A stretch of DNA of 53,110 nucleotides from the NCBI GenBank assembly GCA_016285645.1, contig JAEERC010000014.1, positions 1 to 53,110 of the forward strand, written 5' to 3'. Below the pieces are notes generated by a model. The model was not told the DNA's origin. It saw nothing but the letters and a program-made list of their open reading frames with translations, and did not search any database. The position numbers and the translations under genes were made by a program. The stretch comes from Clostridiaceae bacterium (GTDB taxonomy: Bacteria; Bacillota; Clostridia; Oscillospirales; Acutalibacteraceae). Within the stretch, counting starts at the first letter, position 1. Every line of letters starts with the position of its first letter. This document shows positions 1,171 through 26,211 of this stretch, one piece after another.

Positions 1171-1370
1171 AATGAAGTCGGGCTGACGCCCTGATGAAGT
1201 CACTCGCTTTGCTCGTTAATGAAGTTTGCGCTTACAGCGCAAATGAAGTTTTCTGCTTCGCAGAAAGTGAAGTTAAGTGTGCCACCCACGCCCGCAGGCA
1301 TTTCACACGCCGTAAGGCGTATTTCACGCCCGAAGGGCATTTCACAAATCCTGAAAGGATTTATTTCGTT
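1171..1370. repeat. Array of small hairpins separated by ATGAAGT / ATTTCAC repeats
   Basis: The left half carries the heptamer ATGAAGT at 1172, 1194, 1219 and 1243 and GTGAAGT at 1267. The right half carries ATTTCAC at 1300, 1321 and 1339 and ATTTCGT at 1363. Between neighbouring heptamers sit short palindromes of unrelated sequence: GGGC/GCCC (1180-1191), TTTGCGC/GCGCAAA (1225-1243), TTTCTGC/GCAGAAA (1250-1266), ACGCC/GGCGT (1307-1320), GCCC/GGGC (1328-1338) and AAATCCT/AGGATTT (1346-1362). The unit at 1201-1217 is only weakly palindromic. ATGAAGT can pair with ATTTCAC with one G-U pair, so the whole block is also one long imperfect inverted repeat. The block lies between two terminators and next to tRNA-Lys, so it appears to be an intergenic element. 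Short open frames cross it on both strands but look like by-products of the repeats. Confidence 0.85.
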
Positions 1371-1371
1371 G

Positions 1372-1404: not shown

Positions 1405-1480
1405 TGGTGATCCACCGGGGACTCGAACCCCGGACACCTTGATTAAAAGTCAAGTGCTCTACCGCCTGAGCTAGTGGATC
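1405..1480 (-). tRNA. tRNA-Lys (TTT anticodon)
   Basis: On the minus strand the gene starts GATCCACTAGCTCAG and has D arm GCTC/GAGC. The anticodon stem CTTGA/TCAAG has loop CTTTTAA, giving anticodon TTT. The T arm contains GGTTCGAGTCC. The acceptor strand GTGGATC is followed by A and an encoded CCA. It is 76 nt. Confidence 0.95.
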
Positions 1481-7267: not shown

Positions 7268-7296
7268 TTGACAATTTTCCTTATATGTTATAAAAT
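7268..7296 (+). promoter_or_regulatory. Promoter for the sigma-like membrane protein
   Basis: Perfect TTGACA (7268-7273), 17-base spacer, TAAAAT (7291-7296). It drives the gene starting at 7362. No second, differently shaped promoter that might indicate autoregulation by an alternative sigma factor was recognised. Confidence 0.7.
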
Positions 7297-7361: not shown

Positions 7362-9542
7362 ATGGTAAATGAAAACCTTGTTTCGTTCGTCCTTGACGCT
7401 CAGCAGGGCAACGAAGACGCATTTGCAAAACTTTATTCCCGCACACTTAAAAATTCTTATTATCTTTGTCTCAAGCTGACTGCCGACGCGGACCTTGCGC
7501 GTGAGGTCCTCAAAAAGGGCTACGCCGCGGCGTTCTGCAGCATAGGCAAACTCAAGCGCCCCGAGGCGTTCGAATCCTGGCTCAAACAGAAAATGGCGGC
7601 GGCTTACAAGTCAACCCGCAATTTCTATTTCGGCGACGCGGACGCGGACGCTCAGGCGTCCTCGCAGGAATTCCTTCCCGCGTCTGTGCTTGATGACGAT
7701 TCTCTCTGCCGCAGGGTTGAGGATTATGTCGCGTATCTTCCCGATGAACAGAGAACGGTTGCAGTGCTCTATTACTGCGTTGGAATGCCGGTCGAGTTTA
7801 TCGCCAAATTCCTTAATGTTTCCCCGAGCACGGTCGAGTCCCTTCTTGCCGCGGCAAGGCAGGGCATAGTCGAGCCGCTCAATCTCGGCGATGTAACTCT
7901 CTCGGAAGACACAATGCCGGTTCTCACAAAGATTTTTATGCGCTCGGCTGCCGACACCAAAATTGAAAACGACCTTGTAAGGCAGACATTTATTTATGCC
8001 ATTGACTGCTACCACGGCAACGAGAACCCGCTCGATGAAATCACTGTTTCGCCCGAAACGGAAAGCCCGAAGCCCGCTGCTGAAAGCGAACGCGAAGAGG
8101 CGGCTGAAGGTCCTGCCGAAGGCCCTGTTGAAGATACTGTTTTACCCGAAGACGGAATCGAAACGGAAACGGAACCCGAAACAATCGAAATTGATGAAAA
8201 TACAAAGCCCTCACAGGCAGTTACCGGCGCGGATCTTCTCAATGAAATCAACCGCTCCATAAATGAAATTGCAGGTTCCCCGCTTCTCAACAAGGAGCAG
8301 GAAGAGGAGTTCGGCGGCATCTACATCAGCCAGATAAGCGAAGAGGACGACAAGCCCGCGCAGGAGGATATCCCCGTAAGGGAGAAGCCCGAAAAGAAAC
8401 CTTTCGCGGGAATCAAAGATAAGAAAAAACTCTTCATAATCGCCGCAATCGCTCTTGTTCTTCTGGCGGCGATAATCGCAATAGCAGCCGCCGTCAGGAA
8501 CAAAGGCGGAAAAGAAAACGAAGTTATCGCCGTTCCTCAGAATGTTTCAAAAGAATGGGTTGAGGACGCCACTCTCACCAATTACAAAGCAATTCAGTAT
8601 TTCAACGAGAATTACTGCATTTTCCAGGCGGGCGAGGAAGCAAAGTGGGGTCTTATGGATTATCAGGGCAATGTAAGATTACAGCCCACATATTACCTGT
8701 TCAAGCGCTGCTCCTACGGCAGAGATTATAACGAGGACGAAGGCGAGCCCTACCACTATCTTGTTCAGAACCAGGCGGACGGCAAGCAGTTCATTCTCAA
8801 TATGGATACCCTTATGCCGGACAGCAAGCCCCACGAGAACCACAACTCAAGTTCCGAAACCATAGAGAAGAGCAGGATTTACGACGAGCGCGACCGCTTC
8901 CACAACGGCTATGCCGCGGTAAGAGATGAAAAGACCGGTAAATGGGGCTACATCTCAGAGGAGAGCCGCAAACTTGTTATAGACTGCAACTACGAACCGG
9001 TCAACGTTTTCGAAAACGAGGCGGAATACGCGATGTGCGACTACTGCCTTGCCGTTGACGAGGGTCTCGTAGCCGTAAAGAGAAACGGCAAGATGGGCAT
9101 TATCAATCTTAACGGCGAAACAATCGTTGACTTTGAATACGCCCAGATTCTTCAGGGCAAGGACGGCGTGTTTATTGCTCAGAAGGGCAGCAAATGGGGC
9201 TATATCCTTGTAGGCGACAAAGCCATAACCTTTATGAAGGACAAACTCGCGAAGGCGGCTGAAACCACTACCAATCCCGATTCCGGCACCGCTCTCGGCG
9301 ACCTTCAGGCGATCCTCAGCGAATATGACGCGCTCGACAAGACCTATGAGACCAACACCGTAGTCAATGTCAGAGACTCAATAGGCGGAGAAGGTAATCT
9401 GATTGTCGAACTCGAGGAAGGCAAGCAGGTCAAGGCAGTTGCCGAAGGCAGAGACGAAAACGGAAACCGCTGGATATGCGTTGAACTCGATTCCGGCTAC
9501 GGCTGGCTTCGCGCTAAATATGTCGATCTGGTTTACGATTGA
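7362..9542 (+). CDS. ECF-sigma-like domain fused via one TM segment to WG repeats and an SH3 domain
   Basis: This 726-residue protein joins parts that normally occur apart. Residues about 15-95 resemble sigma region 2 (DAFAKLYSRT...LTADADLAREVL...SIGKLKRPEAFESWLKQK). Residues about 120-170 resemble region 4, with LPDEQRTVAVLYYCVGMP followed by the helix-turn-helix EFIAKFLNVSPSTVESLL. Residues about 222-350 are a long acidic, Pro/Glu-rich linker. A Lys-rich stretch and one membrane segment follow (about 356-380). Outside there are four WG-type repeats (KWGLMDYQG about 427, KWGYISEES about 526, KMGIINLNG about 576, KWGYILVGD about 611) and a C-terminal SH3-like domain (about 664-726, VVNVRDSIGG...GYGWLRAKYV). 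Positive charges before the membrane segment predict the sigma-like part inside. In region 2 the usual acidic patch (D..Q/E.F) is weakened to LKKGYAAAF, so it may no longer be a working sigma factor. Start at 7362 follows AGGAAGTGG. No anti-sigma gene is adjacent. Domain calls are mine by eye. Confidence 0.8.
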   Translation: MVNENLVSFVLDAQQGNEDAFAKLYSRTLKNSYYLCLKLTADADLAREVLKKGYAAAFCSIGKLKRPEAFESWLKQKMAAAYKSTRNFYFGDADADAQASSQEFLPASVLDDDSLCRRVEDYVAYLPDEQRTVAVLYYCVGMPVEFIAKFLNVSPSTVESLLAAARQGIVEPLNLGDVTLSEDTMPVLTKIFMRSAADTKIENDLVRQTFIYAIDCYHGNENPLDEITVSPETESPKPAAESEREEAAEGPAEGPVEDTVLPEDGIETETEPETIEIDENTKPSQAVTGADLLNEINRSINEIAGSPLLNKEQEEEFGGIYISQISEEDDKPAQEDIPVREKPEKKPFAGIKDKKKLFIIAAIALVLLAAIIAIAAAVRNKGGKENEVIAVPQNVSKEWVEDATLTNYKAIQYFNENYCIFQAGEEAKWGLMDYQGNVRLQPTYYLFKRCSYGRDYNEDEGEPYHYLVQNQADGKQFILNMDTLMPDSKPHENHNSSSETIEKSRIYDERDRFHNGYAAVRDEKTGKWGYISEESRKLVIDCNYEPVNVFENEAEYAMCDYCLAVDEGLVAVKRNGKMGIINLNGETIVDFEYAQILQGKDGVFIAQKGSKWGYILVGDKAITFMKDKLAKAAETTTNPDSGTALGDLQAILSEYDALDKTYETNTVVNVRDSIGGEGNLIVELEEGKQVKAVAEGRDENGNRWICVELDSGYGWLRAKYVDLVYD

Positions 9543-9569
9543 TAAATAAAACAAAATACAATTTGCTTT

Positions 9570-9757
9570 GAAGAGAAGAGTCTGTAACGTGTTTCACAGA
9601 GAGCGGGCGGTTGCTGAAAGCCCCGCAGACCTCCGTTAAAGACAGCCGTCTCCGAGCATCCGCGCGATGAGCGCGGCGTAACAGGCGTTAACGTTAAAGA
9701 GTGGTGCATTTGCGCAATTTGGGTGGTACCGCGGAGAAATCCGTCCCATTTTAATTG
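9570..9757 (+). promoter_or_regulatory. T-box riboswitch of alaS
   Basis: The leader contains AGAGAGC followed by GGCGGTTGCTGAAAGCC (stem I elements, about 9598-9623) and the conserved T-box GGGTGGTACCGCGG (9721-9734), which pairs with the uncharged tRNA acceptor end. GCGGA (9731-9735) with TCCGT (9740-9744), extended by GGG (9721-9723) with CCC (9745-9747) and followed by ATTTTAATT, is the terminator that competes with the antiterminator. An alanine codon is expected in the specifier loop; GCC at 9645 and GCA at 9656 are candidates, but I could not place the specifier loop with certainty. Uncharged tRNA-Ala should raise expression of alaS and anything cotranscribed. Confidence 0.9.
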
Positions 9758-25530: not shown

Positions 25531-26211
25531 ATGTTATTAACCCTGATTCGCAGCGGTGATCCGCTTCAAATTATTACCGGAATACTTACCAGCATATTTA
25601 TTGTCTTTTGTTCTATGCCGATTCACGAATACGCCCATGCGCTTGTCGCCACAAAACTCGGCGATGAAACACCGAGACTGCAGGGCAGGTTGACGCTTAA
25701 TCCTATTGCACATGTGGACTGGCTCGGAGCCGCAATGATATTGCTTGTCGGCTTCGGTTACGCCAAACCCGTGCAGGTAAATCCCAGAAATTTCAAAAAT
25801 CCTAAATCGGGTATGATTCTTACCGCAGCCGCCGGTCCTTTTTCAAATCTCATTATGGCGAATATTTTTATGCTTTTAAGAAATTTTGCTGATGCGGCAT
25901 TTTTTAAATATGCGGAATCTGATGTGCTTCATGCTGCTGCACTGTTTTTCTATTACGCTGCTTACATAAATGTAATTCAGGTTGTGTTTAATCTTTTACC
26001 TATACCGCCTTTGGACGGTTCAAGAATTGCCTCATTTTTTATCCCGAAAAAGTATTATTTCAGCATTATGAAATATGAGCGCTACATAATAATCGGTGTT
26101 TTCGTTTTACTTATGATTGGTGTTTTGGATATACCGCTAAGGTTTTTAAGCGGATTGCTTATGAATGCCATAGACTATGTTTCAAGATTGCCGTTTAAGG
26201 CGGTCGGTTGA
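25531..26211 (+). CDS. M50-family (site-2-protease-like) membrane metalloprotease
   Basis: The 226-residue protein has four or five membrane segments, the zinc-binding HEYAH (about 30-34) in the first, and NLLPIPPLDGSR (about 156-167), whose Asp is the third metal ligand. It also has TAAAGPFSNLIMA, a typical S2P stretch. No PDZ domain is present, so it belongs to the small S2P group, not the RseP type. The start abuts the prmC stop (TAAATG). Its DNA is clearly richer in A+T than its neighbours; for example only about 16 of the 60 bases at 25861-25920 are G or C. The substrate is unknown. A small S2P next to scpAB is a common arrangement in Firmicutes. Confidence 0.9.
   Translation: MLLTLIRSGDPLQIITGILTSIFIVFCSMPIHEYAHALVATKLGDETPRLQGRLTLNPIAHVDWLGAAMILLVGFGYAKPVQVNPRNFKNPKSGMILTAAAGPFSNLIMANIFMLLRNFADAAFFKYAESDVLHAAALFFYYAAYINVIQVVFNLLPIPPLDGSRIASFFIPKKYYFSIMKYERYIIIGVFVLLMIGVLDIPLRFLSGLLMNAIDYVSRLPFKAVG

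What the first reader, a model, noticed from the sequence alone, without database searches (positions are those of the whole stretch)
7362..9542. A sigma-factor-like protein that spans the membrane, with WG repeats and an SH3 domain outside
Seen: sigma region 2-like and region 4-like segments, a 130-residue acidic linker, one membrane helix, four WG repeats and a C-terminal SH3-like domain, all in one uninterrupted frame with its own promoter. Known: ECF sigma factors are normally soluble and held by a separate anti-sigma factor; SH3b domains often bind peptidoglycan. Inference: this could be a one-protein signalling device in which an outside signal (wall fragments, or damage to the wall) changes access of the sigma-like part to RNA polymerase, possibly with release by proteolysis of the long linker. 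Region 2 lacks part of the usual acidic core-binding patch, so it may instead sequester DNA or polymerase, or be a structural relic. The small site-2 protease at 25531 is a conceivable processing enzyme, but nothing in the sequence ties them.
Basis: partly seen in the sequence, partly recalled or inferred. Interest (0 to 1): 0.82.

Follow-up and report, generated by a model that had tools for sequence, protein, structure and literature searches.

The report
Membrane receptor with disabled sigma domain
A gut bacterium and nearly all of its close relatives carry a membrane-spanning protein with a sensor-like part outside the cell and, inside, a well-kept copy of a gene-switching "sigma factor" whose working residues have been replaced, which suggests a sigma-shaped decoy or docking module rather than a working switch.

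Summary
In detail: one 726-aa frame (7362-9542) joins an ECF-type sigma2/sigma4 region, an acidic tether, one membrane helix, WG repeats and an SH3-like end. It is conserved: 42 of 45 genomes of the genus have it, whole or in part (15 of 15 good ones), before alaS in 19 of 19 testable neighbourhoods; no genome of another genus in the samples searched has it. But it is probably not a membrane-held working sigma factor. Of five residues marking core-polymerase, -10 and -35 contacts, 24 of 25 aligned orthologues keep none and one keeps one; 27 of 32 membrane-fused ECF relatives keep all five, none fewer than three. The acidic core-binding helix and basic recognition helix are both neutralised, yet sigma2 is the best conserved domain and under strong purifying selection, so it is no relic. 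Best reading: a transmembrane receptor whose cytoplasmic output is a pseudo-sigma domain, perhaps a sigma mimic that binds an anti-sigma factor, as PhyR does.

The parts
7268..7296 (+). housekeeping (sigma-A type) promoter-like site, TTGACA-17-TAAAAT
   Evidence: 11 of 12 consensus bases; weak as statistics
7362..9542 (+). whole gene, 726 aa: transmembrane pseudo-sigma receptor
7362..7646 (+). sigma2-like domain, residues 1-95; most conserved domain of the protein
7512..7517 (+). region 2.2 K51-K52 in place of the core-binding Q-E/D pair of SigW and the membrane-fused ECFs
   Evidence: orthologues K23/S2 and K20/N4/Q1 of 25; membrane-fused ECFs Q 32 of 32 and E/D 30 of 32
7707..7871 (+). sigma4-like HTH, residues 116-170, with recognition-helix K/R positions replaced (E159, L161 here)
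   Evidence: Pfam Sigma70_r4_2
7908..8006 (+). conserved segment after sigma4 (residues 183-215; consensus LPVLTRIF...VRxIFxYA); by eye not in the canonical membrane-fused ECFs
   Evidence: consensus; compare
8028..8411 (+). acidic, length-variable cytoplasmic tether (residues 223-350)
   Evidence: mean pairwise identity 20%
8430..8486 (+). single membrane helix, residues 357-375, basic residues on the inner (N-terminal) side
   Evidence: hydropathy
8544..9281 (+). ectodomain with WG-type repeats, residues 395-640; invariant C450, H465, C562 and nearly invariant H491, H494
9339..9539 (+). C-terminal SH3-like domain, residues 660-726
   Evidence: SH3_3 in 24 of 25 orthologues; not scored in the window protein itself
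9559..9751 (+). T-box leader of the downstream alaS (conserved neighbour, not part of the device)
   Evidence: RF00230 101.9 bits; synteny

Best explanation
A single-pass membrane receptor whose cytoplasmic domain is a pseudo-sigma factor. [quoted passage not shown] the positions kept are largely hydrophobic and structural; the marker residues for core RNA polymerase, the -10 element and the -35 element are gone in the orthologues aligned; the domain is under strong purifying selection; it is tied by a variable tether to one membrane helix and a WG/SH3 ectodomain. INFERRED: it does not direct transcription itself. Instead the sigma-shaped domain is a protein-binding module whose access or grip is changed by the ectodomain's ligand (wall glycan or peptide, or a redox or metal signal at the conserved Cys/His set). 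The most likely partner, by analogy with PhyR, is an anti-sigma factor, so that the receptor would work as a membrane-held anti-anti-sigma that frees one of the cell's real ECF sigma factors. Likelihoods: pseudo-sigma with a non-sigma output about 0.75; the anti-sigma partner in particular about 0.35.
For: Five-position score (Q, E/D, region-2.3 N, two recognition-helix K/R): orthologues 0 of 5 in 24 of 25 and 1 of 5 in one; membrane-fused ECFs 5 in 27, 4 in 3, 3 in 2 of 32; SigW 5; the own genome's three soluble ECFs 3 each. Of 43 positions conserved (by residue group) in at least 90% of the membrane-fused ECFs, the orthologues keep 27, lose 9 and are mixed at 7; the lost ones include the Q, the E/D, both recognition-helix K/R and a basic residue past sigma4. 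Mean net charge: region 2.2 helix -0.1 against -4.0; region 2.3/2.4 +0.2 against +3.7; recognition helix +0.1 against +3.2. The orthologues form one group at 100/100 on a stem of 1.65 changes per column. A profile of 15 membrane-fused ECFs built without any orthologue scores the window protein 138 bits and the genome's three soluble ECFs 41-62. Sigma2 omega 0.026-0.119 in 7 of 7 chosen pairs; sigma2 is the most conserved domain (57% mean pairwise identity over 351 pairs). Present in 42 of 45 genus genomes, before alaS in 19 of 19 testable neighbourhoods of 20 fetched. Precedent: PhyR's sigma-like domain has a correct ECF structure with the promoter- and core-binding regions degenerated, and titrates NepR (PMC8103513, passages). 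Each of the genome's three soluble ECFs lies next to what looks by eye like a single-pass membrane protein, possibly its anti-sigma factor.
Against: No structure could be predicted, so fold and surface are inferred from alignment. Some polar positions stay: the acidic residue before the lost pair (SigW D47) is E/D in 24 of 25, and two basic positions of sigma4 (R131, R166 here) are kept. Single losses at these places do not prove inactivity: seventeen Hodgkinia strains carry the E407A-type change in their sigma70, and mutation of region 2.2 residues is said there to cause just a weakening of binding (PMC8321222, passages). Two of the genome's three soluble ECFs also lack the Q, and each of the three lacks two of the five marks; two membrane-fused ECFs (L065, L081) have N at the E/D place. 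No partner is known; no anti-sigma gene was recognised beside this gene. An anti-sigma factor might need the same acidic patch that was lost.
Confidence: 0.6

Rival explanations
1. A working ECF sigma factor held at the membrane and released by an outside signal (regulated proteolysis of the tether or membrane helix), with an unusual core and promoter interface.
For: ECF homology over sigma2 and sigma4; long tether; an M50 protease is encoded in the window. Membrane-fused ECFs activated by proteolysis are known or proposed: IutY shown; ECF52, ECF48, ECF53 and some ECF36 predicted (PMC8999054, section 16 read).
Against: Core-binding Q-E/D pair replaced in 25 of 25; both recognition-helix basic residues lost in 25 of 25; region 2.3 N lost in 24 of 25. 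All sigmas of a cell share one core enzyme, so a matching change in the polymerase is unlikely (inference). Nothing found ties the protease to this gene.
Confidence: 0.15
2. A membrane-bound DNA-binding regulator that uses the sigma4 helix-turn-helix alone, without polymerase, in the manner of CadC/ToxR-type proteins (comparison recalled).
For: The HTH is still recognised by Pfam Sigma70_r4_2 in 25 of 25 orthologues at E up to 0.1.
Against: The recognition helix is neutralised (mean net charge +0.1 against +3.2) and its K/R positions are N/E/D and L/V/F/I.
Confidence: 0.06
3. A decayed relic: the outside part is what matters and the sigma part is left over.
For: A paralogue with a WG-SH3 ectodomain, a membrane helix and no sigma part exists (G000:C27, 418 aa), so the ectodomain can live without it. 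In G031 the orthologue is split over two frames, by frameshift or assembly error.
Against: Sigma2 is the best conserved domain and has omega 0.026-0.119 in 7 of 7 pairs (the ectodomain is similarly constrained, 0.027-0.242). The gene is found in 42 of 45 genomes at one place in the 19 neighbourhoods that could be checked.
Confidence: 0.04
4. A sigma-shaped inhibitor: the domain binds the genome's real membrane-fused ECFs, or blocks polymerase by a different contact, rather than an anti-sigma factor.
For: Nearest to the membrane-fused ECFs by profile score; the 15 of these aligned share, with variation, a cytoplasmic segment after sigma4 that could be a common docking site (inference).
Against: No data on contacts; the lost acidic patch makes a competitive polymerase contact unlikely.
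Confidence: 0.15

Closest known systems
PhyR sigma-like domain (sigma-factor mimicry, alphaproteobacterial general stress response)
   Same: ECF-type sigma domain with degenerate core- and promoter-binding regions, linked to a sensory module (PMC8103513 passages).
   Different: PhyR is a response regulator with a receiver domain, generally encoded with nepR and ecfG; this protein is transmembrane with a WG/SH3 ectodomain, shows no receiver and lies beside alaS. Anti-sigma binding is not tested here.
ECF52 (SCO4117), ECF48, ECF53: membrane-fused ECF sigma factors of Actinobacteria
   Same: sigma - membrane helix - outside part in one chain (passages; section).
   Different: Those are described with a zinc-finger (anti-sigma type) domain and taken to be working sigmas; here no such domain was found and the sigma marks are lost. 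The ectodomain is WG+SH3, not a carbohydrate-binding module as in ECF52.
ECF262 (listed for Ruminococcus albus, with a regulatory extension)
   Same: Possibly the classified home of membrane-fused ECFs in these Clostridia; named in PMC8999054 Table 2.
   Different: No model or sequence of ECF262 was at hand; whether the canonical paralogues (C19, C24, C41) belong there was not tested.
Canonical membrane-fused ECFs of the same genome and order (T group here)
   Same: Same order of parts; nearest sigma relatives among those of this genome; one with a WG repeat outside occurs in another family of the order (L054).
   Different: They keep 3-5 of 5 marker positions; the window family keeps 0-1. By eye they have an Ala/Gly-rich tether and a conserved segment after sigma4 that the orthologue consensus lacks.
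IutY (ECF243)
   Same: Sigma fused to a membrane-bound regulatory part in one protein (PMC8999054, section 16).
   Different: Released by Prc/RseP proteolysis to become an active sigma; no such activity is expected here.

Membership tests
ECF (Group 4) sigma factor, as a working sigma | sigma2 and sigma4 homology | tested here: met
   TIGR02937 over cut-off; SigW E 1.7e-11 with the orthologue profile
ECF (Group 4) sigma factor, as a working sigma | region 2.2 core-binding Q-E/D pair | tested here: not met
   0 of 25 orthologues have Q, 0 of 25 have E/D; 32 of 32 and 30 of 32 membrane-fused ECFs do. The Q alone is not universal: 2 of 3 soluble ECFs of this genome lack it
ECF (Group 4) sigma factor, as a working sigma | -10/melting Asn in region 2.3 and basic residues of the -35 recognition helix | tested here: not met
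   N in 1 of 25; recognition-helix K/R in 0 of 25 at both positions; membrane-fused ECFs 28, 31 and 32 of 32
ECF (Group 4) sigma factor, as a working sigma | binds core RNA polymerase and directs transcription | not testable with these tools
   needs biochemistry
ECF52-type membrane-fused sigma | membrane helix and outside domain C-terminal to sigma | tested here: met
ECF52-type membrane-fused sigma | zinc-finger anti-sigma domain between sigma and membrane helix | tested here: not met
   none among the 10 Pfam hits of the window protein at E up to 1 nor among the 25 of 37 families shown for 25 orthologues; tether 20% identical between orthologues
ECF262 | match to the group's own model | not tested
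   no ECF262 model available; known here only from a table entry
PhyR | sigma-like domain with degenerate core/promoter determinants | tested here: met
PhyR | receiver domain | tested here: not met
   none among the 10 Pfam hits at E up to 1
PhyR | genes for the anti-sigma factor and its ECF sigma nearby | tested here: not met
   neighbours: PHP and phosphoesterase genes upstream (Pfam), alaS and a HIT-like gene (named by eye), then phosphoribosyltransferase, comEC-like and holA-like genes (Pfam)
PhyR | binding of an anti-sigma factor | not testable with these tools
   needs interaction assays

The most novel reading that the evidence does not exclude
A first transmembrane pseudo-sigma receptor: a genus turned a membrane-fused ECF sigma factor into a dead but strongly conserved sigma mimic that senses outside the cell and frees or captures other sigma-pathway proteins at the membrane, a one-protein partner switch without phosphorylation and without its own transcriptional activity.
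Probability: 0.4. Interest if true: 0.8.

Novelty: new variant of a known kind. Interest (0 to 1): 0.6.

Why it matters
Sigma mimicry is best known (recalled, and PMC8103513 passages) from PhyR, a response regulator. A sigma domain stripped of its polymerase and DNA marks but kept by selection on a transmembrane receptor would be a second use of the principle and would link outside sensing to sigma control without a kinase. The same genome holds three membrane-fused ECF proteins with intact sigma residues, so live and dead versions of one architecture can be compared directly. The survey also points to a class of one-protein transmembrane sigma factors in Clostridia with varied ectodomains (LRR, CAP, Ig-like, WG) for which my text searches found only a table entry (ECF262) that may or may not be the same class.

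Tried and rejected
Considered and rejected or downgraded: (1) chance ORF or mis-assembled fusion: rejected, 42 of 45 genomes of the genus carry it whole or in part. (2) Relic: rejected by selection. (3) Fused anti-sigma domain in the tether: none found; the tether is variable. (4) Processing by the M50 protease at 25531: real protease, no link found. (5) Orthologues outside the genus: none found in samples of 295 order, 250 family and 398 phylum genomes; those calls scored only the best 2-4 candidates per genome, so weak or odd relatives could be missed. (6) Viral contigs: no relative confirmed. (7) genome contigs: two loci: L035, a full orthologue whose contig length and score equal those of G030, so counted once; and L036, a weak 48-residue match, not followed.

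Rows dropped: one search gave orthologue-type frames in 31 loci (L001 and L006-L035). 27 full-length frames were aligned; L028 (split over two frames), L032 and L033 (frames open at an end of the fetched stretch) and L035 (copy of L006) were left out. Of the 27, 25 went into A1/A2 and the residue counts; L014 and L021 were left out there as near copies but are in the 27-row counts. So residue counts cover 25 of the 42 genomes with the gene. In one search the gene is in pieces in some genomes: G031 two frames, G006 two contigs, G005 only the sigma end (232-aa frame), G009 and G029 cut short. The 32 membrane-fused ECFs were chosen, not drawn at random: 3 of the own genome, 20 picked by hand from the listing for frames of 456 aa or more (some are near copies, e.g. 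L071, L074-L076), and 9 loci returned; for two (L079, L080) one search listed no membrane helix, because it listed only helices after the end of the sigma match, which there ran far downstream. The seven pairs were chosen by hand; some dS values exceed 1 or were saturated.

Print: text searches of an open-access library on this question (listings seen) showed no paper on a sigma factor with WG repeats or on this family. The main classification paper (gkaa1229) is not held, nor two others, so its groups are known here only through a review. Papers seen: PMC8999054 (passages and sections 16 and 25), PMC5826349, PMC8103513, PMC4598750, PMC12148442 and PMC8321222 (passages only). The matching of the region 2.2 pair to sigma70 Q406/E407 and of the recognition-helix positions to E. 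coli sigmaE contacts is recalled, as are the R(173)/R(176) column labels.

Full report
WHAT IS THERE. The frame 7362-9542 encodes 726 residues without a stop. Residues 1-170 are ECF-sigma-like: TIGR02937 exceeds its curated cut-off (45.7 vs 42.9 bits; 49.3 bits), Sigma70_r4_2 hits residues 118-167, and a profile of 25 orthologues aligns at positions 6-169 with SigW at E 1.7e-11. Pfam's region 2 model misses the window protein and hits 4 of 25 orthologues, the first sign that region 2 is altered. A segment at 183-215 is conserved among orthologues, then an acidic tether, one membrane helix at 357-375 with basic residues before it (a like stretch in each of 27 orthologues), a WG ectodomain (25 of 25 by Pfam at E up to 0.1) and an SH3-like end (24 of 25; not scored in the window protein itself).

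HOW WIDE. Of 45 genomes of the genus 42 have the protein, whole or in pieces; the three without it are 63-86% complete, and 15 of 15 genomes at least 90% complete and at most 5% contaminated have it. One (G031) is split over two frames. Among 250 genomes drawn from the family only the 4 of this genus match at E 1e-35; none of the other 246 does. In 295 of the order, 22 others match in part only (sigma part, or in one case the WG part), and in 398 of the phylum only the own genome matches at E 1e-28. These three calls scored only 2-4 candidates per genome. In 20 fetched neighbourhoods, of 20 hand-picked genomes, it lies just upstream of alaS, a HIT-like gene and a phosphoribosyltransferase gene in 19; in the 20th the contig ends there. 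The T-box leader of alaS follows at 9559-9751.

THE SIGMA PART IS STRIPPED BUT KEPT. I aligned 25 orthologues with 32 membrane-fused ECFs (3 of this genome, 20 of the genus, 9 of the order), the genome's three soluble ECFs and SigW. At the region 2.2 pair the orthologues have K23/S2 and K20/N4/Q1; the membrane-fused ECFs have Q 32 and E/D 30 (N 2). At the region 2.3 Asn the orthologues keep 1 of 25, the others 28 of 32. At two recognition-helix positions the orthologues have N22/E2/D1 and L16/V6/F2/I1; the others K 31 of 32 and R 32 of 32. The alignment places a four-column gap in region 2.4 in 25 of 25. Counting five positions, 24 orthologues score 0 and one scores 1; the membrane-fused ECFs score 5 (27), 4 (3) or 3 (2); SigW 5; the three soluble ECFs 3 each. 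So single marks vary among ordinary ECFs of this genome, and only the combination separates the families. Of 43 positions conserved by residue group in at least 90% of the membrane-fused ECFs, the orthologues keep 27, lose 9, and are mixed at 7. Of the 27 kept, 19 are aliphatic or aromatic; three charged places (E48, R131, R166) are kept too. The lost ones include the four contact marks just named other than the Asn, which fell under the 90% line. Mean charge follows: region 2.2 helix -0.1 against -4.0, region 2.3/2.4 +0.2 against +3.7, recognition helix +0.1 against +3.2.

IT IS NOT A RELIC. Over 351 pairs of 27 orthologues sigma2 is the most conserved part (57% mean identity; ectodomain 51, sigma4 48, tether 20). 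In 7 of 7 hand-chosen pairs sigma2 omega is 0.026-0.119 and sigma4 0.036-0.255; the ectodomain 0.027-0.242; the tether 0.11-0.29 in the 5 pairs that could be computed (some dS values exceed 1 and are rough).

ORIGIN. The orthologues form one group at 100/100 on a stem of 1.65 changes per column; the deep branches among the membrane-fused ECFs are unresolved. A profile of 15 membrane-fused ECFs, without any orthologue, scores the window protein 138 bits and the genome's three soluble ECFs 41-62 (one of them in two pieces). A proline is shared (25 of 25 orthologues; 30 of 32 membrane-fused ECFs) that the soluble ones and SigW lack (0 of 4). So a membrane-fused ECF probably lost its sigma marks on one stem and was then held constant (inference).

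THE OUTSIDE PART. C450, H465 and C562 are invariant in 27 of 27; H491 and H494 are kept in 25 of 27 and lost together in one related pair (L017, L019). A disulfide or metal site is possible; this is inference. A paralogue (G000:C27, 418 aa) has a WG-SH3 ectodomain with a membrane helix and only a short inner tail; 34 of 37 genus genomes, own included, show a separate ectodomain-only match of this kind in the listing, of which only the own copy was read.

MECHANISM. Best reading: ectodomain ligand -> change at the membrane -> change in exposure or grip of a sigma-shaped binding module. PhyR shows that such a domain can titrate an anti-sigma factor (PMC8103513 passages), and each of this genome's three soluble ECFs lies beside what looks like a single-pass membrane protein that could be its anti-sigma (by eye). 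The partner is a guess. Against: the region 2.2 changes alone need not abolish binding (PMC8321222 passages), and no structure was obtained.

COMPARISON. One-chain sigma-membrane-outside proteins are known in Actinobacteria (ECF52 and others), and a Ruminococcus albus group with an extension, ECF262, is listed. Those with a described mechanism are taken as working sigmas. What appears new here is the disabled yet conserved sigma part on a transmembrane receptor; hence 'new variant of a known kind'.

Noticed in passing
G000:C19 (L038), C24 (L039), C41 (L042): Three further ECF-membrane-ectodomain proteins with intact sigma residues in the same genome; ectodomains: Thr-rich stalk (by eye), CAP domain, BspA-type LRR.
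   Followed up: partly
L054, L061, L062 and alignment A5: Membrane-fused ECFs occur in several families of the order with varied ectodomains (WG, LRR_5, Big_2) and share, with variation, a cytoplasmic segment just after sigma4 that might be a built-in inhibitor.
   Followed up: partly
G000:C27:6439-7020 (L005), 418 aa: Paralogue with membrane helix, WG repeats and SH3 but no sigma part; ectodomain-only matches of this kind in 34 of 37 genus genomes in the listing.
   Followed up: partly
L040, L041, L043: Each of the genome's three soluble ECF genes is followed by what looks by eye like a single-pass membrane protein, possibly its anti-sigma factor.
   Followed up: partly
window 9559-9751: T-box leader before alaS.
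   Followed up: no
window 1295-1371 (-): Gut-1 RNA close to a tRNA gene at 1408-1480 (-).
   Followed up: no
window 25531-26211: Small M50 (site-2 type) protease, 226 aa; no link to the sigma-like gene found.
   Followed up: no
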